From: a virus
Length of the DNA: 64,000 bases
Strand: one strand, 5' to 3'
Virus record (IMG/VR): IMGVR_UViG_3300025362_000004
Coordinates: 59,583 to 123,582 of that record
The notes under the pieces are model-generated. The model was not told where the DNA came from. It was given only the letters and a program-made list of their open reading frames with translations, and did not search any database. The position numbers were made by a program, and so were the translations under genes. Shown piece by piece: positions 9,156 to 64,000 of this stretch. The stretch's first letter is position 1. Each line of letters opens with the position of its first letter.

Positions 9156-9230
9156 GCGAGTATGGTATAATGGTATTACGACAGTCTCCAAAACTGCAAA
9201 ATGTGGGTTCAAATCCTACTACTCGTGCCA
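9156..9230 (+). tRNA. tRNA-Trp(CCA)
   Basis: Acceptor GCGAGTA/TACTCGT, G73 (Trp identity), CCA; loop CTCCAAA. Decodes the normal UGG codon. Confidence 0.88.
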
Positions 9231-14797: not shown

Positions 14798-14817
14798 AAA
14801 AAAAGGAGATGTTTTAA

Positions 14818-16862: not shown

Positions 16863-16880
16863 TAAAAATAATAAAATAGA

Positions 16881-16978: not shown

Positions 16979-16999
16979 CATAATTAAAAAATAAATAGA

Positions 17000-17085: not shown

Positions 17086-17105
17086 CAAAAATAAAAATAA
17101 ATAAA

Positions 17106-17159
17106 TTAGAGCCTAAGCTTACTTCTAAAACAATTCGATGTTAATTAGCTAGGCCATCT
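17106..17159 (+). ncRNA. Y-RNA-like small RNA, unit E
   Basis: Stem GCCTA (17111-17115) / TAGGC (17150-17154), CTTACTTC (17118-17125), small ACA/TGT inner hairpin. Aligns along its whole length with unit A. Confidence 0.55.
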
Positions 17160-17179
17160 TAAAAAGAAGACTTCAGTTA

Positions 17180-21733: not shown

Positions 21734-23132
21734 TATATTATAACTAAGTGAGATATATAATATTATTTAGTTATCGGTCTTTGAAAAACAAATGAGAAAT
21801 TATCACTCATTTCATATGAAATTAATGGTGGCCTCAAAGCTGTTCGCGGCTTAAAGGTGGGTATCAACACGAACTCCAAAGGTTCGTTCGTAGTCCAAAA
21901 GACAAGGGGATATCGCTGTTATCATTAGTTGTTGTAAATTAATACCATCGGTGGTCATTTAGTAAAGTGAGAGTAGCGTCTCAAACTATACTATGGGAAA
22001 ATGATTTTACTGCTGTTGACGGGGAGAAATGCCTCTATAACACGGGTGGTAGTTGAACGTAGAAACCAGTAGAATTTTTAAATAATTAAGCAAATGCTAA
22101 ATTTGTAGGTAATCAATCCTACCTATTACACGCCTTGTGCAATATAGAGACCTTGCTAGTCAATATATGTAATAGTCGCATAATGAATAAGTTGTATATG
22201 TATTGGACTTCCTAATCAGAAGACCCTAACGTAAGTTAGTACACTAAAACCCTAACTCTTGCTTGGAGTAAGTGGCGTATAAATGAGGTTGAAATACCTT
22301 TCGAGCCTGTTGAGGCAAATTTATACGGCGAAACATATATAATTTAATTAGTGCATCGAGAAGCGACTCAGTATCTGGGGCCCGCGACCCTCCCAGGGCG
22401 TGGATGAGACCCAAGCGTAGATATGAAAACCGTTGAAACGGGTAAAACCGTGTATAATGAGTCAAGCCAATTCGAGTAAAAGCATAAAAACGGAAAAAAA
22501 TACAGATACTTTCTTAAAGTGAAAGTTGACTTGTTTAAGACAGGTAAAATAGATTAAAGCCTACGTACTTGTGAGTAATCAATCTCACTATCCTTCGGGA
22601 TATGTAATGAACCAACACAGTTAATGAATAAACTTATTGGTAAGATAATAAATCCAATCCGTTAATTTTATATGAAATGAGTGAATAACACGAGGCAGTT
22701 TAGTGTCTCTAAAGGGAAAAGGTGGGTAACCATCTGGAAGGTATTTGACAAATATCGCTATGTAATATAGCCCGTCTAAACAAAAGTAGTCAAGTGAGAG
22801 TATTAAAAATGTAGCTCACTCTTCAAGATAGTAACGAATTGTTGGAGAATAGATACTGTTATTATGTTAAAAGGAGTCAACGGCAAGTGCTTAGATTCTG
22901 TGGTTATCTCGTGGTGGGATAATCGGCATATCCAAAAATAATAGAATTGAAAGAAAACTACAAGGGTAATAAGTATGAGGTTAGCAACTAAATGCAGTTA
23001 CCCATTAAGTAAAGTAAAAATGGAGCTTTATTTAAAGTGAAAGTACCGCGAGGAAATCACAACGGAGATATTGAATATTTTGTGTCCCAAAAGGAAACGA
23101 AGTTCAGGTTGAAGTATATCTTCTGTCAAAAC

Positions 23133-23233
23133 AAACAATACATATGGGGGTTCGAGTCCCTCCCTAGCCTCCAATAAAAATTATATGGCTGGGTAGCTTA
23201 ATGGGTAAAGCAGTTGTCTAAGAAACAATACAT
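23133..23233 (+). tRNA. Circularly permuted tRNA (3' half before 5' half)
   Basis: The 3' half comes first: AAACAATACAT, T-arm GGGGG-TTCGAGT-CCCTC, acceptor strand CCTAGCC, U73, CCA (ends 23173). After 13 nt the 5' half follows: acceptor strand GGCTGGG (23187-23193), D-arm TAGCTTAATGGGTAAAGCA, and anticodon arm GTTGT-CTAAGAA-ACAAT (23213-23229). The two acceptor strands pair at all seven positions with one G-U. AAACAATACAT occurs at both outer ends, marking the joint in the anticodon arm. Read on the 5' half the anticodon is AAG. Confidence 0.7.
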
Positions 23234-23588
23234 TTGTATAAGCGAAATCTTCAAAGATTTAAGATGAAAATGCCTTAATTCCACAGAGTAATACTTAATG
23301 TGGAGCAGTAAAACTCGCAAGGTAATACTGTTTGATAAGGAAATGCACGGCGTCTCTAGCGAGACTTAGTGAGTCGCAAGCTCACACGGTAATGGAATTG
23401 TCGATTAATCTTAAATGACAGGGTGCTAAGCATCATCCTTCCAGAGATGGTAAAACAAAGCAGGCATGCTTCTAAACAGACCCGAGTCTGTGGATAAGTT
23501 AATTAACACGTGCAGATAAGCATCGCGTGGTACGATTAACTAAAGTAGGAGTATTAAAGATATAATCTCAGTCTTTAAAAACTAAACT

Positions 23589-27418: not shown

Positions 27419-27531
27419 AAATTATAAAGATGTAAAGGTAAAGTTATTGGGAAATAACTACACAAAATTAAGAGCCTAGAACAGGTAGTCTGATTGCCAC
27501 TTTAAATCAAAAAACTTAAAGGTGGTTTAAA

Positions 27532-28005
27532 ATGAAAAATTTAAAAAGAAAACTTATTGCGACATTCACAGTAATGATGTTTGCCTTACTGGCAACAATT
27601 GGAACAACTTATGCTTACTGGAATTACTTTGTACATACAGAGTCTAGTATTACAGTAGAAGTTGGAGTAGCCGACAGAATAGTCGTAGCAATTAACACAA
27701 CAGGTGCAGGTGCTTTAGTCCCAGCAGGACAATCTACAGGTGCTGAAGTTGAATCTATTGTATTGACTTATGATGTTTCAGTTACACAAGGTGCAGTTGA
27801 CAGTGGTATTACAACATTATCTGTAACAACAGCAAATGAATCAACAGCATTAGTTAACATCTCTGTTAGCGCGCCAACAACTTTAACAGTGGCTAATCAA
27901 ACAGTTACGGTTACAGTTACATTAGATTCCCCAGCAGACCAAGCGGCTTATGATGCTTTAATTGCAGCTGGGATTACATTCGACTTAGTTTTTACTATAG
28001 CGTAA
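27532..28005 (+). CDS. Secreted camelysin/TasA-like protein, 157 aa
   Basis: A Sec signal peptide spans res 1-~28: basic MKNLKRK, hydrophobic LIATFTVMMFALLATIGTTY, then AYW. The T-Y-A-Y-W exit resembles SipW-type signals of TasA/camelysin proteins. The mature part is a Thr/Val-rich beta-sandwich with no Cys. Phages rarely encode such proteins; it may change the surface of infected cells. AGGTGG precedes ATG. A second exported protein follows 8 nt later. Confidence 0.75.
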   Translation: MKNLKRKLIATFTVMMFALLATIGTTYAYWNYFVHTESSITVEVGVADRIVVAINTTGAGALVPAGQSTGAEVESIVLTYDVSVTQGAVDSGITTLSVTTANESTALVNISVSAPTTLTVANQTVTVTVTLDSPADQAAYDALIAAGITFDLVFTIA

Positions 28006-28013
28006 GTCAGAAT

Positions 28014-28283
28014 ATGGCGAAAAGAATAGCAATCATTTGGCTTGTTATTGGAATGTTATTCCTAATGGGGATAAATCAAACTTACGCATATTCTTGGAAT
28101 ATATTACAAGAAACAAAAGCTAGTCAAATAACAGTTGGAGCATGGGATTATGCGCCTCAATGGAATTCTACAACAACTTACTTAAGGGGAGATATCGTAG
28201 AATATAATGGAATTAAATATGAGGCTAAAAAAACTAGTACAAACCAATTACCAACGAACAATAAATATTGGAGAACAGTTTAA
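28014..28283 (+). CDS. Secreted carbohydrate-binding (CBM5/12-like) protein, 89 aa
   Basis: Signal peptide (RIAIIWLVIGMLFLMGINQT then YAYSW) followed by AWDYAPQWNSTTTYLRGDIV (res ~43-62) and EYNGIKYEAKKTSTNQLPTN, ending YWRTV. W...Y-x-x-G-D-x-V-x-x-N-G-x-x-Y-x-A...P...W is the chitin-binding CBM5/12 pattern. It probably binds extracellular glycans. It shares the Y-A-Y/W signal end with its neighbour, so both may use the same peptidase. Confidence 0.8.
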   Translation: MAKRIAIIWLVIGMLFLMGINQTYAYSWNILQETKASQITVGAWDYAPQWNSTTTYLRGDIVEYNGIKYEAKKTSTNQLPTNNKYWRTV

Positions 28284-28290
28284 TACGAAC

Positions 28291-28322
28291 GCGGTTACCT
28301 TCGGGATAGCCGCATTTTGTTA
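28291..28322 (+). terminator. Probable terminator
   Basis: GCGGTTACC-TTCG-GGATAGCCGC stem-loop followed by ATTTTGTTATTT; T-run imperfect. Confidence 0.6.
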
Positions 28323-28329
28323 TTTAGAT

Positions 28330-28358
28330 TTGATTATTTTTATAATCTATGTTATAAT
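28330..28358 (+). promoter_or_regulatory. Promoter of the 28386 operon
   Basis: TTGATT (28330-28335), 17-nt spacer, TATAAT (28353-28358), TATG extension. Confidence 0.8.
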
Positions 28359-28385
28359 ATAAGTATAAGAAAGGAGAATTATAAA

Positions 28386-28685
28386 ATGAAAAAATGGATT
28401 TTAGATACTTTATTTGCTTTAACACATATCCAACATTGGGTTAGGAATCATTCAACAAGTAAAGAGTTAGACAAGTGGTTTAACAAGGAAATAGAAAAAG
28501 GAACAAAGTTTAAAAGAGTTTATATATACGATACTTTAGATGAATACTGTGCGGAATTTGCTGGAATAGACTTATGGATAAAAAATATACCTTATGCTTG
28601 TTTTGTTATTAATGGTTTTATGCCAAAAAGAAGAACAGTCAATAAACTACAAAGGTTATTAATGGAGAGTTCATTAGATGTATAA
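28386..28685 (+). CDS. Hypothetical protein, 99 aa
   Basis: AAAGGAG precedes ATG. Basic protein with several Trp near the N-terminus (MKKWILDTLFALTHIQHW). No family recognised. Its last 8 nt overlap the next gene. Confidence 0.65.
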   Translation: MKKWILDTLFALTHIQHWVRNHSTSKELDKWFNKEIEKGTKFKRVYIYDTLDEYCAEFAGIDLWIKNIPYACFVINGFMPKRRTVNKLQRLLMESSLDV

Positions 28686-29061
28686 AAATGTATTTACATA
28701 TGAACCACATAAATACACATTAGCATTTATAGACTTAAACGGAACTATCTCGGGTGACCTTATGAAACAAATTAAATACCGCCAACCAAAAGTTATAGAA
28801 AAAATGCATAATTTTATTTCTTCTGTAGAACTTTCTATAGGCGATAACTTTACTATAGATGATTATGTATTTATAATTTCTCGTAAACACTACCGTAATA
28901 AAACAAATCTAATATTAACAGAAAAGGCTCTTGAGGATTTAACTTTTAATCATATGAAAACAACTCTTGAAAATTTTCCAGAATTAAAACCATTATTAGA
29001 TAAATTCAATATTGAAATTTATGAAACTTCGGAATGGGGAGTTTGGGATAAACGTGACTAA
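28678..29061 (+). CDS. Hypothetical protein, 127 aa
   Basis: Start overlaps the previous gene; GGAGAG lies 12 nt before. Mixed-charge soluble protein, no motif recognised. Last gene before the tRNA-Trp(UCA) promoter. Confidence 0.65.
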   Translation: MYKNVFTYEPHKYTLAFIDLNGTISGDLMKQIKYRQPKVIEKMHNFISSVELSIGDNFTIDDYVFIISRKHYRNKTNLILTEKALEDLTFNHMKTTLENFPELKPLLDKFNIEIYETSEWGVWDKRD

Positions 29062-29095
29062 AATATCACATAAATATTCTTTTTTTATTCCAAAG

Positions 29096-29124
29096 TTGAC
29101 AATTTTTTAAAATCGTAGTATAAT
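29096..29124 (+). promoter_or_regulatory. Promoter of the tRNA-Trp(UCA) unit
   Basis: TTGACA (29096-29101, consensus), 17-nt spacer, TATAAT (29119-29124). The best -35 in the window. Confidence 0.85.
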
Positions 29125-29129
29125 ATTAA

Positions 29130-29285
29130 TGTAAAGATAAGAAATGCGGCGAAATTTAAACAAAAGAGCGAATATTTTATATTTCGGCAAAACACGTAAA
29201 TTTCCGTCGTACCCCCGAACTGGCAGTACCAGTTTTGGTATGGGTCAAATAGGGCGGCGCCGCAGATTTAGTCTTTATTTTTATT
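29130..29285 (+). other. Leader of the tRNA-Trp(UCA) transcript
   Basis: 156 nt without a supported gene. Contains an ACTGG-CAGT-ACCAGT hairpin near 29219-29234 and a GGGCGGCGCCGC segment. Probably removed during tRNA processing. Confidence 0.35.
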
Positions 29286-29363
29286 GGGAGTATAGTGTCA
29301 ACTGGACAGCACGTCGGCCTTCAAACCCGTACAGCCCCAGTTCAATTCTGGGTACTCCTGCCA
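29286..29363 (+). tRNA. tRNA-Trp(UCA), UGA-decoding
   Basis: Acceptor GGGAGTA/TACTCCT, G73 (Trp identity), encoded CCA, T-arm CCCAG-TTCAATT-CTGGG. Loop CTTCAAA gives anticodon UCA (29321-29323). The anticodon stem is weak: CGG/CCG with mismatches beside the loop. Mollicute tRNA-Trp(UCA) has the same CTTCAAA loop. It explains in-frame UGA in at least ten genes of this window and lies 33 nt before the first of two that depend on it. Confidence 0.82.
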
Positions 29364-29396
29364 ATATTACTGTCAAAGCGACGAGGGCGATACAAC

Positions 29397-29906
29397 ATGG
29401 ATATTTGATTAATAATAGGAACAATAACTGGGCTTTTAGTAGGTATTACAGGGCTTTTAACATACTTTGAACATAGACGAGATGCAAAAGAGAATAAAAG
29501 AAAAAAAGCTACAATTGAAAAACAAGAGGAATTTAAAAAAGAAATAATAAATGAAGTAACTCATAGAACTGCTGAAGAAAGAGAAAGTTGTTTAGAAGAG
29601 AAATTGATCGATTATCTTGATAAAAAAACATACACTGAAAGACATGAAGAAGTTATTAAAGAAATACATAAATTATCAGGACAATTAACCAAACACTACT
29701 CAGAATCAATAGAAACAGAAAGACAAAGATTGGCTTCTGAAATAATTAATTTTGCAGAAGATATAAAAAATAAATTGCCAAAATCTTCAGTCGCATATGA
29801 ACATATACATATATGTTATAAACGATATAAAGATATTGGTGGAAATCATTATATAGATAAAGTGTTTGAATATATACAAAATAGCATGGGTGAAGATGAT
29901 GTTTAA
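29397..29906 (+). CDS. Membrane-anchored coiled-coil protein with UGA at codon 4, 169 aa
   Basis: ATG 29397 follows GACGAGGGCG. Codon 4 is TGA (29406-29408), read as Trp: M-D-I-W-L-I-I-G-T-I-T-G-L-L-V-G. One N-terminal membrane segment (res ~4-24) is followed by a long Lys/Glu-rich coiled-coil region (res ~27-100). Terminating at codon 4 would abolish the protein, so expression depends wholly on UGA decoding. The tRNA for this is 33 nt upstream in the same transcript. Function unknown. Confidence 0.75.
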
Positions 29907-30300
29907 AATTATTAGTTTTATCTGACAATTACCACAGAACTTAATAGGATTATTTTTATACTTGGTATTTGGAACTGCGAAACGCTATAAATATAAAGGA
30001 AAATATGTAGCTCATGCTAAAACAAACAAATGAGGTGCAATAAGTTTAGGAATGTTTATTATTTTCTTTGCTGATTACGGCGATGGAGAATATTATACAA
30101 ATACAATAAATCATGAATATGGACATACAAAGCAATCAAAAATGTTAGGTCCATTTTATTTGTTAATAGTTGGATTACCTTCAATAATTTGAGCTAGTTG
30201 TTTTAAAGGGTATAGGGTGTCTACGGGCGCAAGCTACTACTGATTTTATACAGAGCATTGAGCTGATAAATTAGGTGGAGTTTCCCGCTGTAAAAAATAA
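29899..30300 (+). CDS. Membrane protein with HEYGH motif, all Trp as UGA, 133 aa
   Basis: ATG overlaps the previous gene's end. All five Trp are TGA: FIWQLPQN, NKWGAISL, IIWASC, YYWFYT, EHWADK. NHEYGHTKQSKMLGPFYLL (res ~67-85) contains an H-E-x-x-H metal site inside an otherwise membrane-embedded protein, and TEHWADKLGG near the C-terminus supplies a candidate third ligand (E/D). Small integral membrane proteins with this H-E-Y-G-H-T-x-Q-S pattern are known in Firmicutes; a peptidase role is probable but unproven. Confidence 0.75.
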
Positions 30301-30307
30301 CAATACG

Positions 30308-30355
30308 AAAAGCAAGTTTATGAAATTTGCTTTTTTTTATAATTTATGGTATAAT
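30308..30355 (+). promoter_or_regulatory. Overlapping terminator and promoter
   Basis: AAAAGCAA (30308-30315) pairs with TTGCTTTT (30327-30334) before a T-run. The same TTGCTT is the -35 of a promoter with TATAAT at 30350-30355 (17-nt spacer). Confidence 0.75.
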
Positions 30356-30386
30356 ATATATATAAGATATGGAAATGGAGGTATTT

Positions 30387-30962
30387 ATGTTAGTTTTATT
30401 TAAAAATATGAAACAAGATAATATACTCGTTTTCGATGCCGAATATAATGAAGGAGACTTAATTCAATTTGCTGGGATATTATTTCGGAAAATAGAAGAA
30501 GATATTTTTCAAGTTCATAAATCAATTAATTTCTATGTAAAGTTAGATGGAACAAAAATTAATTATTTTATAGAACGATTTACTGGTATTACAGACGAGT
30601 ATTTAGAAGAAGAAGGGATTAACCTTTCAGAAGCAAAAGAAAAAATAGATGAGTTATTAAGAGAATCTAATAACACATTAATAGTTAGCCACGGATTATA
30701 TAACGATAGATTAACTTTAGAGAATAATGGTATCGATTTTTATGAAATGGAAGAATGCGTTACAGGACTATGTACATATAATATGTCCAAAAGAATATTA
30801 AAAAGAGATAATCATTTAAAATTAGAAGATGTTGCAAGTGAAGCGGGGATCTTCCTTTCACGCAAGCATAATGCTTTTGATGACACCTGGGCAACGGTTG
30901 CGGTTTTTAGCCTATTGTGTAAACTTGATGCGGAGGAAACAGATGAAAAAAGTATTTTATAA
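30387..30962 (+). CDS. DEDDh 3'-5' exonuclease (DnaQ-like), 191 aa
   Basis: Exo I is LVFDAEYNEGDLIQFAGI (res ~15-32, D and E ligands), Exo II around LIVSHGLYNDRLTL (~93-106) with N-D, and Exo III is HNAFDDTWAT (~159-168), giving H and D of the DEDDh set. It could be a proofreading or DNA-processing nuclease; a second DnaQ-like protein lies at 59331. ATG 30387 is chosen because GGAGG precedes it; an upstream ATG at 30369 lacks a site. Confidence 0.85.
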   Translation: MLVLFKNMKQDNILVFDAEYNEGDLIQFAGILFRKIEEDIFQVHKSINFYVKLDGTKINYFIERFTGITDEYLEEEGINLSEAKEKIDELLRESNNTLIVSHGLYNDRLTLENNGIDFYEMEECVTGLCTYNMSKRILKRDNHLKLEDVASEAGIFLSRKHNAFDDTWATVAVFSLLCKLDAEETDEKSIL

Positions 30963-31392
30963 TTATGATAAGATGGATTTAGAACGAAGAAAATCCTATA
31001 AAAAGGTAGTTTTCAATTTGAATGTTCCGAACTTTTATGGAATGGAATTTTTTCAAGAGATTGATAAAAAGATAATAGAGTTTATAAATGAACTAGATAA
31101 AAATGAGCCAACAGTAATCCAAATAGTTGGTGATTTTAGTTTGGTTAAAAATGAAGAGCCAGCAGATATTGAGGATTTTTTAACTTCAATCGTGGCTCTA
31201 TTTATTTCTGCCATTCATATTAAAACGGAAAAATCAGATAGGGAGCATAGATTGGCAGTACCTCAAAAGTTAGCCAATATAAATCTGCCCTATACTTCAA
31301 AATTAAAAATAATAAATTATAAATTAAGACTTCCGATCTTTACGATAGAAATCTTAAATGAAAAGCAAGAAATTTTGCTAAAAATATTTTAG
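30943..31392 (+). CDS. Hypothetical protein, 149 aa
   Basis: GCGGAGG precedes ATG and the start overlaps the exonuclease gene by 20 nt. Mixed helical/beta protein (EPTVIQIVGDFSLVK), no motif recognised. Coupled to the nuclease, so a role in DNA metabolism is possible. Confidence 0.7.
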   Translation: MKKVFYNYDKMDLERRKSYKKVVFNLNVPNFYGMEFFQEIDKKIIEFINELDKNEPTVIQIVGDFSLVKNEEPADIEDFLTSIVALFISAIHIKTEKSDREHRLAVPQKLANINLPYTSKLKIINYKLRLPIFTIEILNEKQEILLKIF

Positions 31393-31400
31393 GTGATATA

Positions 31401-31892
31401 ATGAAAATATTATTATTAACAACTGTTGAGCCAACTCAAGCGGCTATAGACTATAGAGAATTAACTGATGTAATAGATATTAAAAATATTAGTTTAATTT
31501 CAATACCATTTTTTGCTGAGATTGATTCAATGAATAATGGGAGATTATATCTTCCTACTTTATTTGCAATGTATAAAGCAATGACAGATAAACCAACTCA
31601 AAAAAAGATATTTGATAAAAGGCATACATTGATTATTGGGAACTCATATAAGAGTGAGAAGTTTGATATGATTATATCTTTAGGTGATTCTTCAGAAGAT
31701 ACCTATACAAAAATGATAAGAGATTCACAAGAATATAAAGAGTTTAATTTATTAGTAGAAGCAGAAAAATTATACGACTGGCAAGATGCAGAGTTAAACT
31801 TTCCTACAATAAGACACGTCATACTATTTTTAGAAGGAGTTATAAAAGATGGAACAATTCAACGAAAAGCAAAAACTAGCAATACAATGTAA
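31401..31892 (+). CDS. Hypothetical protein, 163 aa
   Basis: TTTTAGGTGATATA precedes ATG. Soluble, no motif recognised. Its last 44 nt overlap the helicase gene, so the two are coupled. Confidence 0.65.
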   Translation: MKILLLTTVEPTQAAIDYRELTDVIDIKNISLISIPFFAEIDSMNNGRLYLPTLFAMYKAMTDKPTQKKIFDKRHTLIIGNSYKSEKFDMIISLGDSSEDTYTKMIRDSQEYKEFNLLVEAEKLYDWQDAELNFPTIRHVILFLEGVIKDGTIQRKAKTSNTM

Positions 31893-33117
31893 TGAAACAG
31901 AAATAGTTATTATCGCGCCTGCGGGAAGTGGTAAGACTACAACACTTGTTGGCGCAATTACAAGATATAAAAATGAAAATCCTGATTCAAAAGTAGTGGC
32001 TATTACATTCACCCGTAAAGCCGCAGAGGATTTATCAAATAAATTAATGGAATATACTAATATAAGAACGTCAACTATTCATAGTTGGGCTTATACAGAA
32101 TTAGATATATTATCAAAAAGAGTTTCAAAAGAGTTTCCTCAAAATACTTTTAAAGTAAAATTGTTAGAGGAAGATAGAATTAAAGAAATACTTAATAGTA
32201 TCATTAAAAATAGAGGTTATAAATACTTAAATATGTATCAATTATATAGTTATGTTATGGGTAATTATAATATTGAGGTTAATGATAAACTAAAAAGAGT
32301 ATTTCAGTCAGTAAAAGATAGTTATGTAGCGTATAAAGAAGATAATGGTTTATATGATTTCACAGATTTACCACAATACTTACTTGATAAGTTAAATGAC
32401 TACGGGTTAAACATTGAAAAAATAGATGCATTATTTGTTGATGAGTTTCAAGACGTAGATGAAACACAATTAGAATTATTTAATCGTGTTCCTGCGCAAA
32501 AGAAGTTTTATATTGGAGACCCACAGCAAGCAATTTATATTTTTAGAGGTGCTACTCCAGATGTTTTAGATAAGTTAGATGATTTTAAAACACACGATTT
32601 GAATATAAATTACAGAAGTTATCAAGAGATTGTAGACTTCGCAAGCAGTGTTCAAGATAAAGCAATGATTCAAGGAGTAAATTTCACTATTGAAAAAGAA
32701 TCATCAAGAAGTAATATTGAATGTATTAAAGGATATGGTGGAAATGTTTATACTCTTAATGCTTCTGGAGATGCATATAAAGTAAATGAGTATATAAGAG
32801 TAAAAGGCATTGATGTCATACGTGGATTTATTATGAGAAATTCAATGATATTGTGTAGAAAAAATAAAGAAGTAAGAGCAATAAAGAATTTAGGTTATGA
32901 TAATGTTTCAACAATACATCAAGCAAAAGGGTTAGAATACGAAAGTGTTATTATAACAAGTTTCGAACTAGCACCTGGTAATATGGAAGAAATAAATATT
33001 GCATATGTCGGAATGACAAGGGCTGAAGATTATCTATTAGCGGCTGACTACAACGCATTTATATATCTATTACCAAAAATTATGCCAGATTATAAAAAAG
33101 CAAATAGTTTATTTTAG
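31849..33117 (+). CDS. SF1 DNA helicase (UvrD/Rep type), 422 aa
   Basis: Helicase motifs in order: Ia/I APAGSGKTTTLV (res ~23-34), AITFTRKAAEDLS (~50-62), TSTIHSWAY (~72-80), II FVDEFQDVD (~199-207), III YIGDPQQAIYIFRGA (~220-234), IV NINYRS (~250-255), V/VI STIHQAKGLEY (~358-368) and AYVGMTRAEDY (~385-395). At 422 residues it lacks the large inserted subdomains of UvrD and is similar to compact phage Rep-like helicases. It unwinds DNA 3'-5' in the family. Confidence 0.95.
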   Translation: MEQFNEKQKLAIQCNETEIVIIAPAGSGKTTTLVGAITRYKNENPDSKVVAITFTRKAAEDLSNKLMEYTNIRTSTIHSWAYTELDILSKRVSKEFPQNTFKVKLLEEDRIKEILNSIIKNRGYKYLNMYQLYSYVMGNYNIEVNDKLKRVFQSVKDSYVAYKEDNGLYDFTDLPQYLLDKLNDYGLNIEKIDALFVDEFQDVDETQLELFNRVPAQKKFYIGDPQQAIYIFRGATPDVLDKLDDFKTHDLNINYRSYQEIVDFASSVQDKAMIQGVNFTIEKESSRSNIECIKGYGGNVYTLNASGDAYKVNEYIRVKGIDVIRGFIMRNSMILCRKNKEVRAIKNLGYDNVSTIHQAKGLEYESVIITSFELAPGNMEEINIAYVGMTRAEDYLLAADYNAFIYLLPKIMPDYKKANSLF

Positions 33118-33130
33118 AAGGAGAAAGAAA

Positions 33131-34219
33131 ATGAAGATAAGTAAAGAAGAATTTAGAACAACTTACTGGAATATGCCTGCCATGAAATACTATGAAGGAG
33201 ATTTATCAAAACAAAAAGCATTAGATATGATAGATAATAACAATAATAATTGTGTTGCTATGGTTAAGTGGGATGGCGAATGGAATATGTCTATTATTGA
33301 TGAAGATGAAACATTAATGAGAGGTCGTAATAAAACTGTTAGCGGCGACTATAAGAATCGCGCAGATTGGTTACCACATATAACTAAACAACTACAATCT
33401 ATTTTTCCTTCTGGAACAGTTTTCTTAGGAGAGGTATCATTTAATGACATAACTAAAACGTCTAAAGACGTTGGAACAATAATGAGATGTAATGTTAGTA
33501 AAGCATTAGAGCGACAACAAAGAGGCCCATTATCATTCCATATTTTTGATTGTCTATGTTATGATTATGAAGACCTTCGGAAAAAAACATTTGAAGAAAG
33601 AATCCAAGTGGTCTACGATAACTATAAGCAAGTAATAGATTATATTTATCCCGTTGCTATTGTAAAAGAAAATTTTATGGATTTTGCAGAAAAAGTTTGG
33701 GCTAAAGGTGGAGAAGGAGTTCTTGTTATTAAAAGGAACGAACCTTATAGAGCTGGCTCAAGAAAAGCTTGGTCAAGTCTAAAATTGAAAAAGAAACTTG
33801 GAGAAATTAAAGTAAAAGTAATAGACCTTATTGAACCAAATAGAGACCACGAGGGAACTAGTGGAGAAGCTTGGCAATACTGGTTAATACAAAAGAACAT
33901 TAATTTCGGTGAAGTTGGTAGAGCTATTTGGATAGATGAAGAATTTTGTAAAACACGCAAAATGATTAAAGACCCATTCCATAGAACTTTACCTGTAACT
34001 AAGCCATACTGGAATAAATGGAAAAATGGTGTTTTAGTTGAACATGAAGGAAATAGAATTAGAGTAGCGTCTGGATTAGACGATGCAACTAGAGAATGGC
34101 TAGCAACGCCTGAAGCGGCTGAATTGCTAGAGAAAGAAGAATTATTCGTAAATATAACTGGCATGGAAATTACTGACGACAGTATCAGACATCCAGTATT
34201 TTTAGGAGTTATAAAATAA
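33131..34219 (+). CDS. ATP-dependent DNA ligase, 362 aa
   Basis: VKWDGEW (res ~44-50) is motif I (K-x-D-G) with the adenylated Lys; LMRGRNK motif Ia, FLGEVSF (~97-103) motif III, FHIFDCLCYD (~136-145) motif IIIa, GGEGVLVIK (~193-201) motif IV and WSSLKLKKK (~214-222) motif V. A C-terminal OB-fold region follows. It seals nicks in DNA during replication and repair. AGAAGGAG precedes ATG; the gene is in the run leading to ribonucleotide reductase. Confidence 0.93.
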   Translation: MKISKEEFRTTYWNMPAMKYYEGDLSKQKALDMIDNNNNNCVAMVKWDGEWNMSIIDEDETLMRGRNKTVSGDYKNRADWLPHITKQLQSIFPSGTVFLGEVSFNDITKTSKDVGTIMRCNVSKALERQQRGPLSFHIFDCLCYDYEDLRKKTFEERIQVVYDNYKQVIDYIYPVAIVKENFMDFAEKVWAKGGEGVLVIKRNEPYRAGSRKAWSSLKLKKKLGEIKVKVIDLIEPNRDHEGTSGEAWQYWLIQKNINFGEVGRAIWIDEEFCKTRKMIKDPFHRTLPVTKPYWNKWKNGVLVEHEGNRIRVASGLDDATREWLATPEAAELLEKEELFVNITGMEITDDSIRHPVFLGVIK

Positions 34220-34233: not shown

Positions 34234-36747
34234 ATGCAAGTTAAAAAAAGAAATGGAGAACTTGAAGATTTTAATTTAATGAAAATCGCCAAGGCAGTAT
34301 ATAGAGCAAGGCTTGATGCGGGTTATGAAAAAGACTTAGAGCGTTGCGTTGATGAAGCAAAAATAATCATGAAAGATATTGTTAATGGTAAAACTTTAGA
34401 TATTGAAACAATTCAAGATGAGATAGAAAAGTATTTTATTAAAAATGATGATATAGAAGTATTTAAACTTTTCACTTTCTATCGTGAAAAAAGACGACAA
34501 GACAGAGCTAATCCATGAGCCAATAATGACGAGCGTCAAGATTTAATACTTCAAAAATATTTACTTCCAACAGAAACTAAAAAGGAATTTTTAGATAGAA
34601 TATCACTTGGGAGAACAGACCTTCTTAAGATTTTTAGAAATCGAGAGGGTATTTGAGGTGGAAGAAACCTTTTTGCGATAGGTAGAGACGGTAATATTAC
34701 TGGTTCTAATTGTTATGTTGCTGAAAATCCAACAGATAGTTTAGAGGATATTTATAGAGTAGCTTTTGATATTGCTAAAACTTATAGTTATGGTGGTGGA
34801 CAAGGTATGAACTTATCTAATCTTAGACCTAAGGGCGCTAAAGTAAATAATAGTAGTAATACGACACCTGGTGTCATGACTTTTGCAGAGTTATATTCAT
34901 TTATTACTTTACACACACAACAAGAAAGTAGACGTGGAGCACTAATGCTTATGTTAAATATTGACCACCCAGATATAATTGATTTTATTACTTCTAAGCT
35001 AGACTTATCTAAAATTACAGGTGCTAATATTAGCCTTGCGATTACGGATGATTTTATGGAAGCATATAATAATAATAAAGATTGAAATTTAACTTTTGAA
35101 ACGCCTTATGAGATGATAGTAAAAACTGTAAATGCAAGAGATTTAATGCATTTAATTAGTTACTCAGCTCATACAATGGGAGACCCAGGATTCATTTACA
35201 TTGATAATGTTAATAATTATCATTTATTAAGTGAATATGATGAAGTAGAATTTACAGCTACAAACCCGTGTGGTGAACTGCTTGCCTCACATTAAACATC
35301 GAGCAATATCGGTGAAGGCTTAACTGCTAATACCGAGATAAGTTACACTTTAATAGGTGTAACCATCGTAACGCATAGATAATGAAACTTTTGATACACC
35401 GCGTGCGGCGATCCGGACTGGTTCAAAAGAATATAATTTATCCACGAGTGCTCGATATATAATCCCCTACGGATTATATAAAAATATATGCTGACCTACC
35501 AGATGAATAAATCTGGAAAGCCGCGTCTAATTGTCATACGACAGTGGTTGAACGAAAGTTCTAGAAGTAGAGAATAAAAAGTCTTTACGATAACAATAAA
35601 GGAGCAACCTTTAATGGCAAATGGTTCATGCAACCTCGGAAGTATTAACTTAAATGCTTTTGTAAGAAAAAATTTTACTGAAGAGGCGTATTTTGATTCT
35701 GGAAGATTTATTGAAGTAGTTAAATCTATGATTAGTGGATTAGATGAATTATTAGATATAATGGGTGAAAGACATGCATTGGCATCTCAAAGAGAACATG
35801 TTATAGAATGGCGTGAAGTTGGATTAGGAGTTATGGGACTTGCTGATTTAGCTTTAAGTATGGGATTAGGATATGGAACATCTGAATTTATTAAAGTTCT
35901 TGATGTGATTATGTCTACAATGGCTAATGCGGCGGCGCAAGCGTCGGTTGAATTAGCGGTAGAAAAAGGAACATTCCCGAAATATGATTATGAAAAGATT
36001 TCTAGTTCAAGGTTCTTTAATGAAGTCTATTCAGAAGAAACAAAAAATATGATACAAGAGTATGGTTTAAGAAATAGTAGATTACTAAGTATTGCACCAA
36101 CTGGTAGTATATCAAATATTATTGGAGTTAGTGGCGGCGTTGAGCCTTATTTTATGCTTGGCTATCAAAGAACTATTAAGTCTATGTTCGAGGATGAAAA
36201 GACAATTTGAATTTACGAAAAAACTCCGTTAAAAATGATGAAGTATTTCAAACTTGAAAATCATTATGATTTACCTGATTGGGCTAAAATAACTTCACAG
36301 AATATTAATGTTAATTCAAGATTAAAAGTTCAAGAGACTATTCAAAAATATGTTGATACAGCAATTTCTTCAACATTTAATTTACCTAATGATGCTACAA
36401 CTGGAGATGTCGAAGGTATTTATAAAAGCGCTTGGGCTAGAGGAATTAAAGGAGTTACAGTATTTAGAGATAACTGTAAAAAAATTGGTATTCTTACAGG
36501 TGGTGGAGATAGTTTTGATAAACATCCTGCGGAAAAACCATCAATGGTTATTAAAGAGCTATGATATAATAAAGCGACTCAAGAAGAAAAACAATTTATT
36601 ACTAATATCCAAATAGGAGAAAGTGATTATCAAGTTGAAAAAATTGGTTTAGAATATTGTCCAGAGTGTGGTAGTCATTTAGTTAAAAAGAATGGCTGTA
36701 CTCAATGTAGTAGTAACGATTGCGACTACGAGAAGTGTGGAATATAA
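34234..36747 (+). CDS. nrdJ: B12-dependent (class II) ribonucleotide reductase with UGA-Trp codons and a group I intron, 728 aa after splicing
   Basis: An ATP-cone is N-terminal (KKRNGELEDFNLMKIAKAVY). Catalytic features follow: GSNCYVAENPTDS with the first active-site Cys, YGGGQGMNLSNLRP, NPCG interrupted by the intron then EQPLMANGSCNLGSINL, and SIAPTGSISNIIGVSGGVEP. The C-terminus YCPECGSHLVKKNGCTQC is the Cys-rich tail of NrdJ. Five in-frame TGA codons (34516, 34655, 35083, 36208 and 36562 region) fall where Trp fits; three Trp are TGG. It makes dNTPs for phage DNA synthesis using adenosylcobalamin. Thioredoxin, its likely reductant, overlaps the stop. Confidence 0.92.
35275..35601 (+). 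other. Group I intron in nrdJ
   Basis: The reading frame breaks after NPCG and resumes with EQPLMANGSCNLGS, the expected continuation. The 5' exon ends TGTGGT and pairs with GCCTCA inside the intron, putting the terminal U opposite G, the hallmark of the group I 5' splice site. The 327-nt insert ends in G. ATCGGTGAAGGC...ATACCGAG and TGAACGAAAGTTC provide helices. There is no homing ORF; a copy of the GC-rich hairpin repeat (35399-35410) sits in a peripheral region. Confidence 0.85.
35392..35412 (+). repeat. GC-rich hairpin repeat, copy 6 (inside the intron)
   Basis: GATACACCGCGTGCGGCGAT, identical over 20 nt to the copies at 11769 and 53221. Confidence 0.85.
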
Positions 36748-37061
36748 TGGATTTAGATAAAAGCTCTTTAAAGAGAGCCAGTCAAAATCAAAAATTTATT
36801 CTTGACTTTTATGCAGACTGGTGTAAAGGGTGTCAAAAAATAAAACCAATCCTTGAAGAAGAACAAGAAGTTAGTAAAGATATTAGATTTATTTATATTA
36901 ACGTTGATGACTTTGATAAAGAATTGTTAAAAAAACAATTTGGAGTCATAGCAATTCCTAACGTTCAATTCTGATACGAGGGCAGAAAAATGGATTTCAC
37001 TGTTGGCTCTGTCGCTGAAGAAAAGATAGTAGGAAAAATAGAGAAGTTTAAACAAAAATAA
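36747..37061 (+). CDS. Thioredoxin-like protein, 104 aa
   Basis: YADWCKGCQKI (res ~27-37) is the W-C-x-x-C redox site and IAIPNVQFW (~72-80) contains the cis-Pro. The Trp after VQF is TGA (36972-36974); ending there would delete the last beta-strand and helix (YEGRKMDFTVGS...). ATG overlaps the nrdJ stop as TAATG, so thioredoxin and reductase are made together; it probably re-reduces NrdJ. Confidence 0.9.
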
Positions 37062-52059: not shown

Positions 52060-52258
52060 TCTAGAAGGGTTATTTAGAAAAAGGGGTATTTCATTATATC
52101 ACGCAGATGGTATTGAGAGAAGCCCTATAGATATAATTGAAGATTTATATATAAGACTTAACCAACGGGAATTAAGTACATTATTTTATGAAATTGGGGA
52201 AGAGGAAGATTTGGGAAATAACATTTTCCAAAGGGAGAGAGAACAGAATGAAAATTAA
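52031..52258 (+). CDS. Hypothetical protein, 75 aa
   Basis: GAGGTGGAAGG precedes ATG, inside the recJ end. Acidic C-terminus. No family recognised. Overlaps the dUTPase start by 11 nt. Confidence 0.6.
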   Translation: MSKNSTNSFSLEGLFRKRGISLYHADGIERSPIDIIEDLYIRLNQRELSTLFYEIGEEEDLGNNIFQREREQNEN

Positions 52259-52805
52259 TTTAATTGAATTAATGCCAATACAACAAGAAGTAAATGATGT
52301 TGTTATTAAAAGACTTGGTAGAAAAGTATCAATAGATGAATACATATTAGCATTTAATGTAGAGTTATTTGAATACTTTAACGCAATCGGGACTTGAAAA
52401 TGGTGAAAACAAAGCCATAAACAAGATAGAGAAAAAATACTTGACGAGCTAGCGGATTGCTTTGCGTTTTTCTTATCTGTGCTTTTAAGGTCAGATGAAG
52501 TTATGGAAGAACGAGGTAAAAATAAGATGTCTAAAACTGCCGAAAGAGAAGTTGAAGATACGCTTAATTTACTTTTAAAAGACCAAGAAAGAGACAACAT
52601 AGATACAACAAAATTAATAAATAGTTGGATTACTATGATTGCCTGTGACCATGAGACTGAAGATAATGTATTCACAACTCAAAGATTCTCAGTAGCAATT
52701 TTTTTAGCAACACAATTATTTGAAAACATAACTTGAAGTGAAATTACTGAAGCATATAAACAAAAATCAAAGGTCAATATTGACCGACAAAACGGAGGGT
52801 ATTAA
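52248..52805 (+). CDS. Dimeric dUTPase/MazG-like pyrophosphohydrolase with UGA-Trp codons, 185 aa
   Basis: Reading UGA as Trp gives EYFNAIGTWKWWKQ then DREKILDELADCFAFFLS (res ~44-76): the E-x-x-x...W-K-W-W-K and E-L-A-D-x-x-x-F metal-binding helices of all-alpha dUTPases. A second helix pair with E-x-x-D follows. In-frame TGA at 52395, 52404 and 52734; two other Trp are TGG. Stopping at the first TGA would remove the active site. It lowers dUTP and supplies dUMP. Start ATG 52248 follows GGGAGAGAGAAC. Confidence 0.85.
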
Positions 52806-59907: not shown

Positions 59908-60087
59908 ATGTCAAAATTAGATTTCACTAATATTAGTGATAAAGAATTATTAGAACTTGAGAAAAATGAAGATTCAGCGATTGGGAAAAAATTAATTAAA
60001 ATGATTTATGACCCAGAACTTGGAGAACATTATGAAAAGTTAGAAGAAATCAAGCAAGAAAAAGACCGCAGAAATTTAGATGGCTAG
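59908..60087 (+). CDS. Small acidic protein, 59 aa
   Basis: ACAGAGGTG precedes ATG. Charged helical peptide (SDKELLELEKNEDSAIGKK), no family recognised. Overlaps the RuvC-like gene by 8 nt. Confidence 0.65.
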   Translation: MSKLDFTNISDKELLELEKNEDSAIGKKLIKMIYDPELGEHYEKLEEIKQEKDRRNLDG

Positions 60088-60820
60088 GTTAAGTAAAGCT
60101 CAATTCTTAGAAGAACTTGAAAATAAAAATCTGACTTTGGATACACAGTCAGAAGAATATAAAAATATAAGTTCTCCAATTCTCGTTAACTGTAAGGAAG
60201 GACATAGAATAGAAACTAATTTGAAAACAATTAGAAGAACTAATTTTAGATGTCCAGTTTGCGAAGGAGAATCGTCTACAGGATTGAGTACACCTAATCC
60301 GCAATCAGTTCCACCTAAAAAGGGATACAGAATTATTGGGATTGATAATGCGACGCAAAGTTTTGGTTTAAGTATATTCGAGAGTGGCAAATTAATTTAT
60401 TATACGTTGTTGACTTTTAGCGGCGATACGACAGCACGATTAAATGCGATAAGAGATGCCATGGAGAATATGATTATACCAGTTTGAGAACCAGATTTTG
60501 TTCAGTTTGAAGACGTGCAATTACAAGGACAAGGATTCGGCAAAGGATTTAAAACTTATGAGGTTTTAGTTAAATTAGTTGGATTACTTGAAATGAGTTG
60601 TGCTAGATTTGGAATTAGATATAGTAAAGTAAGAAGTAATATCTGGAGAAGTAATTTCTTAATTAATGGAAAGGGTAGGACTGAAGAAAAGAAAAAATCT
60701 ATTGCAAAGGTAAAAGAAATGTATGGAGTTACACTTAATGATGATATTGCAGAAGCAATACTTATTGGGAAATACAGAGTTACATTACATGAAAAAAGTG
60801 AACGAAAAGATTTATTTTAA
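60080..60820 (+). CDS. RuvC-like Holliday junction nuclease with N-terminal zinc ribbon and one UGA-Trp, 246 aa
   Basis: An N-terminal zinc-ribbon-like part (VNCKEGHRIETN...FRCPVCEGE, res ~35-60) precedes the RuvC fold: IIGIDNATQSFGLSIF (~91-106, first Asp), VQFEDVQLQGQG (~141-152, Glu) and NDDIAEAILIGKY (~220-232, final Asp pair). TGA at 60485-60487 is Trp (IIPVWEPDFVQFE); stopping there removes the catalytic Glu and Asp. It resolves branched DNA before packaging. Last gene of the rightward block. Confidence 0.88.
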
Positions 60821-60826: not shown

Positions 60827-60858
60827 AAGACTTAGCAAAGGCTAAGTCTTATTTTTTT
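60827..60858. terminator. Bidirectional terminator between convergent gene blocks
   Basis: AAGACTTAG-CAAAGG-CTAAGTCTT, a perfect 9-bp stem, with an A-run on the left and a T-run on the right, so it can act on both strands. Confidence 0.9.
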
Positions 60859-61172
60859 TATACTTCTACATATTGTGACGCCTGTGCAGATATACTTTTA
60901 CCAGTTGCTGTGGCTGTAGCATAAATTGTTGTATACGGAGTCGTAGAGCCTGCAACTATTTCAATAGTTTTTGATAGATAAGTAATTCCAGTGTAGTCAC
61001 TGCCGCCGCTATTAATTGTTGCCGTCACGGTGTCATTATTTTGTACTTTTCAGTAAACGTCATAGAATCTAAATCCATCATAAACAATTGAATAGTCTGT
61101 TATTGTTGGAGTCGTAGTTGGCTCTTTTTGTTGACTTAATACTCCAAATAAGATAATACTAATTGTAATCAC
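60858..61172 (-). CDS. Small tail-region protein with UGA-Trp, 104 aa
   Basis: GTG (61172-61170) follows GTATATAGTAG and overlaps the end of the tail gene. A hydrophobic N-terminus (ITISIILFGVLSQQ) precedes a Thr/Ser-rich Ig-like region (TTTPTITDYSIVYDGFRFY then DVYWKVQNND). The Trp in VYWK is TGA on the minus strand. No family recognised; a minor structural or fibre-associated protein is likely from position. Confidence 0.65.
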
Positions 61173-63297
61173 CTACTATATACCACACTGTTGAAGTATA
61201 AGCAATTAATGTAACAGCCGCATATACAGTAGAGACGACTTTGCTTGCTGAAGAACCATTTAAAGTTACACCACTACATGCTATTGTAACATCATCACCA
61301 GAAGAATTAAATACAGTTATTTGTGTCCCAGCAGTTAGAGTCGACGGTATTGTTAATGTACATTCAGCATAGGCATTTACAAAGCCGTTATTATCTGTAG
61401 CTGCAAAATTCCTAGCTGAGCCCTGACCGTCTATGTGAGCGTATAATAGTCTGTATCCTGCCTTAACATGTGCTGTAGTTGCAATCTGTGTTGTATCTGT
61501 ACCCACTGCGGCTGTTGGGGCCGTAGGGGTTGAAGTTAAAGCTGCACTTGTAAACATCGTAGCTTTTGATTCATTCGTTACATTTTGTAAAAGTAAATCT
61601 GTTTTAAAGAGTGTTGCTGTAAGCAAACTAGCAACGCCTCCAGTTGTGATTTGAATATAACTAGTTGTAGCTGGAGTAGTTTTTGTGAATAAATCTTTTC
61701 CTACATCTGTACCGCCAAGTGACGTTCTACCTGTCGCCGCTACTAGGCCAGTACTACCACCGTCTCATTTAAGCCTATCTGTGTAGGCTGTAGACCAATT
61801 AGTCTGGTTTGTAGTCGTAGGTATACTGTATCCTGCAGTAAATGATAACGCTAATGTACCAGAACCTGTAATAGGTGAATTCGAAACTGTTAAACCGGTA
61901 GGCGCAGATAATCCCACTGAAATTACTGTACCAGTATTATCTGTAGGTGTGAATCCTAAAGCCGTAGTGACATCTAATGAAACTATAGCTGAAGTATAAG
62001 TAGGCACTCCACTATCTGTAACTTTATCATCATTAGTTTGAACTCTGTATTCAAGTTTTCTAAAACTGTCTAATATCGAATCTGTTGCAATTAAATCTGA
62101 TGCACTACCGTAAGTTGTAAAGCCAGTTAAAGCCATGGCAATTACTTGAGCATTACTTAACTGTGTGTTAGGTGGTGCAGTAAATGCACCATCTCCACGA
62201 AGATATTTAGTTGTAGCTGCTGCTGCAGGTACTAAGCCACTATTCCCTTCAGCGATTGCTGAAGAATACTGTATATTTGTAGAATTAAAAGCATTACTTC
62301 CAAAACCTGAAGTTAAAGTATAATCACCGAGTGCAGTTGTTAAGTCTGATGTTACTAAATTTCCACTTGCTGTCCCTGTTAATGCTCCTTTAAAAGTTGT
62401 TGCAGTAATACTTTTATTATCTCTATTTATAGTTATACCAGTTGTAGAATAAACAGTGTCTCCTGAATTCCATACTATATTGTATTCACCAGTTCCACTA
62501 TTACTTGCATTTACATCTACTGTGTCCGCTCATTTTACATATAAATTATCAACCATTGTCGTTGATGCCACTGTAAACGGTGCTGTTCCAGTTACTATTG
62601 ATGATTCAAGTATATTCGCTTTTAATGTACCAGTCGAACTTTGTATTTGGACATTTGTTGCTGAATATAAAGCATTCCCACTATGCCAAGGTACACTGTA
62701 AAATGTTGCATCAGTTCTACCAGTTGCAACTGCTGGGGGGAATGAGGTTCTACTATCAATTCCACTTCTTGAAACCATTGCTACATTGCCAGTTCCTGCA
62801 CCAGTTAATACATAACCATTTGTAAGTGTTGTTAATCCAGTACCACCATGAGTTACTGCAACTGTCCCAGTAACATTTGATGCGTTTCCTGTTATATTAC
62901 TAGTAGATTGAATTGGTGTAAACCCTAACCCAGCAACTACTGCTGCACTTGTAACTACTGCAGTTTTAACACTTGCCAAGCTTGTTGGTCTAACATAATT
63001 ATCTGTCCCATCTCCTGGCGTTACTTGGGTCATAAAGTGATTTGGTGTTGTGTTATTTGATGTATAAGTTGGTCTAAGCAATCTAATTTTTAAATCTCCA
63101 CTGCTATCTCTTAAAGCAATTGTATTTGCCGTATTTTCAGAAGAACTAGAATATCCGTCTAATAAATCTGCATTTAAATTAGTTACTTTTGTCGTTGAAC
63201 CAATCACAAGAGGTGCTGTTCCCGTAGAAACTAAAGAGATAATTTGTCCTGTAATTTTTTGTGCTCCGTATATTTCTGTATATCCTAATTTAGCCAT
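61159..63297 (-). CDS. Tail fibre / receptor-binding-region structural protein with UGA-Trp, 712 aa
   Basis: The reading frame is continuous once two TGA codons (LYVKWADTVD and DRLKWDGGST) are read as Trp. Repetitive Thr/Ser/Ala/Gly sequence typical of phage tail fibres: TKVTNLNADLLDGYSSS near res 37 is the 'N-A-D-x-L-D-G' fibre motif, and PTAPTAAVGTDTTQIATTAH near the C-terminus is a common phage fibre repeat. Part of a minus-strand structural block read towards the replication genes. Four other Trp are TGG. Confidence 0.85.
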
Positions 63298-64000
63298 TTA
63301 ATCAACCTCCGAGAATTCGCCTTCTATAACAAGAGTCCCATCTATTTTTATCTCTGCGGCTTGACCGTTTGAAGTGCCGCTTACTTCGTCTATATTTGTA
63401 AAATATGCGATACTTTTTTCAGAAATTCTATAATTTTCTCCATCTGTAATATCAAATACGTTTAAATCTTTTATATATAAATCTGTTCCTAAAATTCCTG
63501 TACTTGAGTATGTAAAACCAAATTTATATTGTCTATATGTATCTCAATATCTATCAGTTTTTAATACTATCCCAGTACCACTACTTGTCGCATTATTGCT
63601 TGTAGTAAAACTTACATCTGTAGTTAAACCAGTTACTGTCGTTCCATCTGGAAAATACGAATTTGGTAAAATAGTATCTCCAACTGTGACATCTGGGGCG
63701 CTTGTGTGTTTATTTGTATAAAGTACAATATTAGAACCATTTGTTATATCTGAATTTCAACTACCATTTAATCATCTACTACCGACTGTATAATAAATTT
63801 TAATTAAAATATAATCAGCAGATTCAAAATCTGTAAAATTATAAGCCATACTAGCTGTACGAGTAGCTAATCCTATTCCCATTGTACTCCAACCAACCCT
63901 ATATGCAAAATAAGAAGATGCGTTATTTGATGTTTGCCCCTTTATTTTAAAAGTCATTACATAATCATGTTCAGGTATTAAAGCATAATCATCTAAATAT
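63298..64000 (-). CDS. Structural (tail) protein, C-terminal part, with UGA-Trp
   Basis: Frame enters from the right edge and ends at TAA 63300-63298, immediately before the tail fibre ATG with GGAGGTTG upstream. Reading TGA as Trp gives GSRWLNGSWNSD and TDRYWDTYRQ, removing three stops. The product is a beta-rich, Gly/Ser/Tyr-rich region ending IDGTLVIEGEFSEVD, probably a tail or baseplate protein with a carbohydrate-binding-like domain. Partial. Confidence 0.75.

What the first reader, a model, noticed from the sequence alone, without database searches (positions are those of the whole stretch)
29286..30300. tRNA-Trp(UCA) directly upstream of genes that cannot be made without it
A UCA-anticodon tRNA with G73 is followed in the same transcript by a gene with UGA at codon 4 and a gene whose five Trp codons are all UGA. 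About ten genes in the window need UGA=Trp, while large ones such as dnaE and both topoisomerase genes use only TGG. UGA may therefore act as a switch: these genes can only be expressed once the phage tRNA has built up. Recoding of late phage genes to code 4 is known in metagenomic phages; the self-contained tRNA-plus-dependent-genes unit is the notable part.
Basis: partly seen in the sequence, partly recalled or inferred. Interest (0 to 1): 0.85.

Follow-up and report, generated by a model that had tools for sequence, protein, structure and literature searches.

The report
Phage UGA-reading tRNA with dependent genes
This phage carries its own tRNA that reads the stop codon UGA as tryptophan, placed in front of genes that need it, and its relatives carry an apparently undescribed form of that tRNA with two anticodon arms, one reading UGA and one copying the normal tryptophan anticodon.

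Summary
Window 29286-29363 encodes a UCA-anticodon tRNA with G73 that ARAGORN misses and Rfam finds. It lies behind a perfect TTGACA-17-TATAAT promoter and ahead of ORF A (UGA at codon 4) and ORF B (five Trp codons, all UGA). UGA means Trp: UGA1 of ORF B falls on an invariant Trp, and terminase UGA sites align with TGG in relatives. The whole 123.6-kb phage is recoded: structural genes TGA 57/TGG 43, other genes 30/235, and almost no TGA stops. In six related phages the core replication genes hold TGA 1/TGG 242. This is UGA=Trp recoding with a phage suppressor tRNA, a kind already known. A strict late switch does not fit: nrdA, thyX, dut and thioredoxin carry UGA, and a conserved head gene never does. 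Placement beside UGA-only genes recurs in four of five phages, with different genes.

Following the tRNA outward gave the most unusual result. In relatives and many other UGA-recoded phages, though not in this window, the tRNA-Trp(UCA) carries a second, covarying anticodon arm with a UCCA loop (34 of 35 distinct; 0 of 13 tRNA-Sec with G73). I propose it is a tryptophanyl-tRNA synthetase identity element; that is untested. I found no description of it in the open-access papers I could search.

The parts
29096..29124 (+). Perfect host-type (sigma-70) promoter TTGACA-17-TATAAT
   Evidence: 12 of 12 consensus matches. Of 13 perfect promoters in the phage, 12 lie at genome 33-50 kb among mostly small genes, nearly all without UGA, this is the other, and none lies in the structural module.
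29130..29285 (+). Structured leader RNA between promoter and tRNA: a long closing helix around inner hairpins, ending in a U-rich stretch; function unknown
   Evidence: MFE -45.4 kcal/mol, z = -2.46, 5 of 200 shuffles as stable (segment folded 29130-29300); no Rfam match.
29286..29363 (+). tRNA-Trp(UCA), UGA suppressor, one-armed form; G1-U72, G73, CCA; mismatches U27xU43 and C31xC39
29397..29906 (+). ORF A, 169 aa, UGA at codon 4 and no TGG; N-terminal hydrophobic segment then a charged region; small membrane protein (holin-like by shape only)
   Evidence: no Pfam or PHROG family.
29899..30300 (+). ORF B, 133 aa (a second ATG lies 3 nt upstream), five Trp codons all UGA; membrane protein with an HExGH motif, putative zinc metallopeptidase
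   Evidence: invariant W9 (=UGA1), H72, E73, G75, H76, E119 in 12 homologues; AlphaFold pLDDT 82; only weak PDB matches, led by BlaR1 and BepA metallopeptidases, E >= 0.1.
9156..9230 (+). Phage tRNA-Trp(CCA) in the main tRNA array; A27xC43 mismatch leaves a 4-bp anticodon stem
34234..35295 (+). nrdA exon 1, 3 UGA and 0 TGG
35614..36747 (+). nrdA exon 2, 2 UGA and 3 TGG
36747..37061 (+). Thioredoxin gene, 1 UGA and 1 TGG
52248..52805 (+). dUTPase gene, 3 UGA and 2 TGG
60080..60820 (+). RuvC-like resolvase gene, 1 UGA and 1 TGG
60858..63882 (-). End of the structural module in this window: three genes (60858-61172, 61159-63297, 63298-63882) with 6 UGA and 4 TGG

Best explanation
The window is part of a large tailed phage that reads UGA as tryptophan. 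It supplies a suppressor tRNA-Trp(UCA), which must be charged by the host's tryptophanyl-tRNA synthetase because none is encoded in the record. The tRNA is transcribed from a consensus host promoter, of the kind otherwise found in this phage only among a block of mostly small genes that almost all lack UGA, and is probably made early. The same transcript carries ORF A and ORF B, which cannot be completed until enough charged tRNA exists to beat release factor 2, so they would be transcribed early but made late (a feed-forward delay). Most structural genes and some nucleotide-metabolism genes share this dependence, while the core replication genes use only TGG and can be made at once. Shown from sequence: UGA = Trp, the tRNA, the uneven UGA distribution, the promoter, and the absence of a phage synthetase or release factor from the record. 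Inferred: co-transcription, timing, charging by the host enzyme, and a standard-code host.
For: tRNA and dependent ORFs. UGA sites fall on Trp: ORF B, terminase columns 140, 312 and 429, all genes together. TGA split between modules, repeated in five relatives (replication 1/242, structural genes plus ORF B 200/176). Few called genes end in TGA. Promoter placement. No RF or Trp/Tyr-type synthetase found. Neighbouring genes UGA-only in relatives. Acceptor stem most like the phage's own tRNA-Trp, with G73, G2-C71, G3-C70 and G5-C68 as in the Bacillus subtilis Trp identity set (PMC9976931).
Against: No expression data. UGA also occurs in genes usually made early or midway (nrdA, thyX, dut), and the gene at the major-capsid position (genome 21992-22999) has none in six phages. 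Two anticodon-stem mismatches could weaken the tRNA, and C34 is a Trp identity element that this tRNA lacks. ORF B lies apart from the tRNA in G015 and G019. The gene counts come from a simple gene caller written here.
Confidence: 0.7

Rival explanations
1. UGA = Trp is real but has no timing role. UGA drifts into genes that tolerate slower translation or are expressed after the tRNA is present, while the replication genes are kept on TGG because they are needed before it is made.
For: nrdA, thyX, dut and homing-endonuclease genes carry UGA and gene 21992-22999 does not. The identity of UGA genes differs between relatives, as reported for phAss-1 relatives (PMC10607447).
Against: The split is the same in six phages for the core genes, and the suppressor tRNA recurs beside UGA-only genes.
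Confidence: 0.3
2. The host uses code 4 throughout, and the phage simply shares its code.
For: Called genes rarely end in TGA anywhere in the phage.
Against: Replication genes hold 1 TGA against 242 TGG in six AT-rich phages, which a code-4 host would not demand. The phage brings its own UCA tRNA. A MAG whose bin holds a terminase relative (Ezakiella) has RF2, though that contig may be misbinned.
Confidence: 0.05
3. UGA is read as something other than Trp (Gly as in code 25, or Cys or selenocysteine).
For: The anticodon alone fits all of these.
Against: Aligned residues are mainly TGG-coded Trp, with Gly at 2 and Cys at 3 of about 100 aligned sites. 7-bp acceptor and short variable loop, unlike tRNA-Sec.
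Confidence: 0.01
4. The tRNA is a decaying gene, and UGA is read mainly by the phage's tRNA-Trp(CCA), whose A27xC43 mismatch leaves a 4-bp anticodon stem of the kind that permits UGA reading.
For: Mismatches in the UCA tRNA and in the CCA tRNA. 4-bp-stem tRNA-Trp(CCA) reads UGA in E. coli (PMC13092985).
Against: The UCA tRNA keeps acceptor, D and T pairings, G73 and CCA. The CCA tRNAs of relatives G019 and G023 have 5-bp stems.
Confidence: 0.08

Closest known systems
UGA-recoded (code 4) phages with suppressor tRNAs (Borges et al. 2022, summarised in PMC10746230; Lera phage, PMC12386605)
   Same: In-frame UGA = Trp concentrated in structural and lysis genes, a phage tRNA-UCA, and a proposed delay of late genes.
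   Different: A different phage lineage. The tRNA sits in one transcription unit with UGA-only genes behind a consensus host promoter. No phage RF1 or TrpRS, which some code-4 phages carry. Relatives have a two-armed tRNA that I did not find described in the passages I read (Borges et al. itself was not held).
phAss-1 group (TAG-recoded gut phages, PMC10607447)
   Same: Phass-1 appears among the terminase matches (28.5% identity); suppressor tRNA without a synthetase; recoded structural genes and dUTPase.
   Different: UAG = Gln rather than UGA = Trp.
Mycoplasmatales tRNA-Trp(UCA)
   Same: Cognate UGA reader, which can co-occur with a 4-bp-stem tRNA-Trp(CCA) (PMC13092985).
   Different: There UGA = Trp is the host's own code; here replication genes avoid UGA.
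tRNA-Sec (for the two-armed relatives)
   Same: UCA anticodon and long variable arm; ARAGORN calls the two-armed tRNAs tRNA-SeC.
   Different: 7-bp acceptor, found in UGA-recoded contigs, variable-arm loop UCCA.

Membership tests
UGA=Trp recoded phage | In-frame UGA at positions where relatives have Trp | tested here: met
UGA=Trp recoded phage | UGA nearly absent as a terminator | tested here: met
   7 TGA ends among 151 called genes in G000, several of them fragments of code-4 ORFs; 1-4 per genome in five relatives.
UGA=Trp recoded phage | Phage tRNA with UCA anticodon and Trp-type features | tested here: met
   charging itself not testable here.
UGA=Trp recoded phage | Recoded codons enriched in structural genes | tested here: met
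   57/43 against 30/235, P = 5e-20.
UGA=Trp recoded phage | Host uses the standard code | tested here: inconclusive
   Host unknown; replication genes avoid UGA; an Ezakiella bin with a related contig has RF2.
UGA=Trp recoded phage | Phage RF1 and TrpRS (present in some members, not required) | tested here: not met
   No PF00472, PF00579 or TIGR00020 match in G000.
UGA=Gly (code 25) phage | UGA sites align with Gly | tested here: not met
   Gly at 2, TGG-coded Trp at 37.
tRNA-Sec | 8-bp acceptor stem and long variable arm | tested here: not met
   7-bp acceptor in this tRNA and in the two-armed relatives.
4-bp-anticodon-stem tRNA-Trp (UGA-reading CCA tRNA) | CCA anticodon with unpaired 27-43 | tested here: met
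   tRNA-Trp(CCA) 9156-9230 has A27xC43. UGA reading by it was not tested.

The most novel reading that the evidence does not exclude
Many UGA-recoded phages, including relatives of this one, use a suppressor tRNA-Trp with two anticodon arms: a UCA arm that reads UGA, and a second CCA arm that lets the host tryptophanyl-tRNA synthetase recognise and charge the molecule (or that forms an alternative tRNA-Trp(CCA) cloverleaf). The window's tRNA is a one-armed form. The two-armed structure is well supported by sequence; the charging role is a hypothesis.
Probability: 0.5. Interest if true: 0.9.

Novelty: new variant of a known kind. Interest (0 to 1): 0.7.

Why it matters
A stop-codon reader must win against release factor 2 and must also be charged by an enzyme that normally checks C34 of the anticodon. 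The six-phage comparison (1 against 242 TGA/TGG in replication genes) makes the delay model directly testable, and the tRNA unit is a compact candidate timer. If the second CCA arm is what the synthetase reads, phages have separated the decoding and identity functions of an anticodon within one tRNA, which would interest students of the genetic code and designers of suppressor tRNAs.

Tried and rejected
DNA similarity of 29000-33500 to known phages: no match. Pattern TTCARN{12,24}GTTCRA for UCA tRNAs was too loose; its reversed control gave about as many hits. Rfam on G015 found no tRNA at all (that record is probably a fragment). One viral scan had an off-by-one spacer and returned nothing, repeated correctly. 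The Lera phage record was not available, and the Borges 2022 text is not held. A known-host source for the two-armed tRNA was sought in isolate phages and in 398 genomes of the Ezakiella phylum: none found. PDB fold search for ORF B gave nothing significant. Considered and rejected: UGA = Gly or Sec; an assembly error (L004 has the identical 2.4 kb, but is essentially the same virus, so weak evidence).

Full report
1. What is there. The window is bases 59583-123582 of a 123,582-base IMG/VR virus record. At 29286-29363 there is a tRNA with anticodon UCA, G73 and an encoded CCA. ARAGORN lists 39 tRNAs and a tmRNA in the window but not this one, probably because its anticodon stem has two mismatches, U27xU43 and C31xC39. 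Of the listed tRNAs, the acceptor stem most like it is that of the phage's own tRNA-Trp(CCA) at 9156: 13 of 15 positions, both with G1-U72 and G73. G73, G2-C71, G3-C70 and G5-C68 agree with the Trp identity set of B. subtilis (PMC9976931). The window tRNA lacks C34, part of the anticodon identity.

2. The unit. A perfect TTGACA-17-TATAAT promoter lies at 29096-29124, followed by a 150-base leader that folds better than shuffles (z = -2.46), the tRNA, ORF A (UGA at codon 4) and ORF B (five UGA, no TGG). No terminator-like site was found in 28000-31000. Co-transcription is inferred. Thirteen perfect promoters exist in the phage: twelve at 33-50 kb among mostly small genes, one here, none in the structural module.

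3. UGA is Trp. Twelve ORF B homologues (this one included) share an invariant Trp at UGA1. In terminase, UGA columns 140, 312 and 429 alternate with TGG in relatives. Over all genes aligned to five relatives, this phage's UGA codons face TGG-coded Trp 37 times, UGA 20 times, Leu 10, Tyr 6, Gly 2. ORF B is a small membrane protein with HExGH and a conserved Glu, probably a zinc metallopeptidase; PDB fold matches are weak, and the significant viral matches are uncharacterised or loosely named proteins.

4. Distribution. With a simple gene caller, structural genes have TGA 57/TGG 43 and all others 30/235. The 30 sit in ORF A, ORF B, nrdA, thioredoxin, dut, thyX and its neighbours, ruvC, homing-endonuclease and a few small genes. 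Only 7 of 151 called genes end in TGA, several of them fragments of code-4 ORFs. In six related phages the core replication genes (two topoisomerase subunits, DnaB, primase, RecJ, DnaE and two others) total TGA 1/TGG 242, and eight structural genes plus ORF B total 200/176; the gene at the major-capsid position (21992-22999; PHROG 4088, function unknown) has none in any. This split is the reason to think of a standard-code host; the host is not known. The one cellular contig with a terminase relative is in an Ezakiella MAG that has RF2, but the contig may be misbinned.

5. How it probably works. The record has no release factor and no Trp/Tyr-type synthetase, so the host must charge the tRNA. 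The tRNA is probably made early from the host promoter. UGA genes, including the two behind it, would then be translated only as charged tRNA accumulates against RF2. This delay is inferred, and nrdA, thyX and dut show that it is not a strict late-gene switch. Recoding of late genes with suppressor tRNAs is established for other phages (Borges 2022, via PMC10746230; Lera phage, PMC12386605; phAss-1, PMC10607447).

6. Is the unit conserved? Not with these genes: ORF B homologues in G015 and G019 have no tRNA beside them. But the placement recurs. In G048 the tRNA lies between a UGA-only ORF (3 UGA) and a glycosyltransferase-like gene with 9 UGA and no TGG. In G023 it follows a gene with 13 UGA and no TGG. 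In G019 it follows a GIY-YIG ORF with 2 UGA and is split inside the anticodon, after U34, by a 566-base intron (Rfam group I, 26.7 bits, below the gathering score, E = 1.4e-4) whose own ORF contains a UGA. G050 does not show it. Of seven neighbouring genes six are UGA-only, against 7.6% of Trp-containing genes (P = 1e-6) or 21% of UGA-containing genes (P = 6e-4). I chose the neighbours by eye after seeing them, so these P values are indicative only.

7. Two-armed tRNAs. The UCA tRNAs of G019, G023, G048 and G050 have a long variable arm whose loop is GUCCAAA. A scan requiring that loop found 35 viral stretches. Sorted by acceptor length, tRNAs with a 7-bp acceptor and G73 have UCCA in the variable region in 34 of 35 distinct cases, and tRNA-Sec with an 8-bp acceptor and G73 in 0 of 13. 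Because the first scan selected for the motif, the fair count is among loci found only by the second scan: 21 of 22 loci with a 7-bp acceptor and a GCCA end have UCCA (some of these are near copies). Contigs of the first class are UGA-recoded on the whole (309 in-frame TGA; 11 TGA stops in 317 genes); those of the Sec class are not (2 in-frame; 40 stops in 110 genes). The second arm pairs in 90% of cells with 4-6 pair types at each position, against 53% (maximum 69%) for shuffled partners, a control that does not remove relatedness; U33-C34-C35-A36 is invariant in 27 distinct arms, although UCCA was used to place the loop and so that invariance is by construction; A37 is conserved in 26 of 27; the loop has 7 bases in 28 of 34. 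Removing the UCA arm in silico leaves a tRNA that ARAGORN calls tRNA-Trp(cca) in 29 of 34, and the second arm with the 3' half of one two-armed sequence (of the L216 type) matches ordinary phage tRNA-Trp genes. None of 41 records has a Trp/Tyr-type synthetase, though many are fragments. No match in 398 genomes of the Ezakiella phylum. Literature searches for two-anticodon tRNAs in open-access papers found none. My reading is that the CCA arm supplies the anticodon that TrpRS checks; a fold-switching tRNA that reads both UGA and UGG is an alternative. The window's own tRNA does not have this arm.

8. Verdict. The window feature is a real member of a known kind, with a compact tRNA-plus-dependent-genes layout that recurs loosely in relatives. 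The delay model is plausible and untested. The two-armed tRNA seen in relatives is the part a specialist would find surprising, and it carries most of the interest score.

Noticed in passing
L074:247-343 (-), L109:1501-1597, L107:1501-1596 (-), L065:8389-7726 (-), and loci L147-L288: UGA-suppressor tRNA-Trp with two anticodon arms (UCA, then a covarying arm with a UCCA loop) in UGA-recoded phages; absent from the window tRNA.
   Followed up: yes
L065:8389-7726 (-): G019 suppressor tRNA interrupted inside its anticodon by a 566-base probable group I intron whose ORF itself contains a UGA codon, so the intron ORF would need the spliced tRNA.
   Followed up: partly
window 14744-14800, 16788-16862, 16876-16984, 16994-17092, 17104-17172: Five copies of a small RNA element: a 5-bp stem that changes on both sides, a bulged base, a 3-bp stem, then conserved UACUUCAAA. 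Copies 2 and 3 of the cluster hold T-arm-like sequence, and one looks like a permuted tRNA piece (3' half before 5' half). No Rfam match.
   Followed up: partly
window 29130-29285: Stable structured RNA between the perfect promoter and the tRNA, ending in a U-rich stretch; possibly a separate small RNA.
   Followed up: partly
window 35296-35613: nrdA is interrupted between its NPCGE and NGSCNL motifs by about 320 bases, probably an intron; both exons carry UGA codons.
   Followed up: no
window 9156-9230: Phage tRNA-Trp(CCA) has an A27xC43 mismatch, a 4-bp anticodon stem of the kind reported to allow UGA reading.
   Followed up: no
window 23063-23574, 27427-27501, 18006-18397: GOLLD RNA, a c-di-GMP-I riboswitch and a tmRNA gene (predicted tag ends in KW rather than AA) in the phage.
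   Followed up: no
L002:1992-2999 and orthologues: The gene at the major-capsid position (PHROG 4088, unknown function) has no UGA in any of six recoded phages, unlike most other large head and tail genes compared.
   Followed up: no
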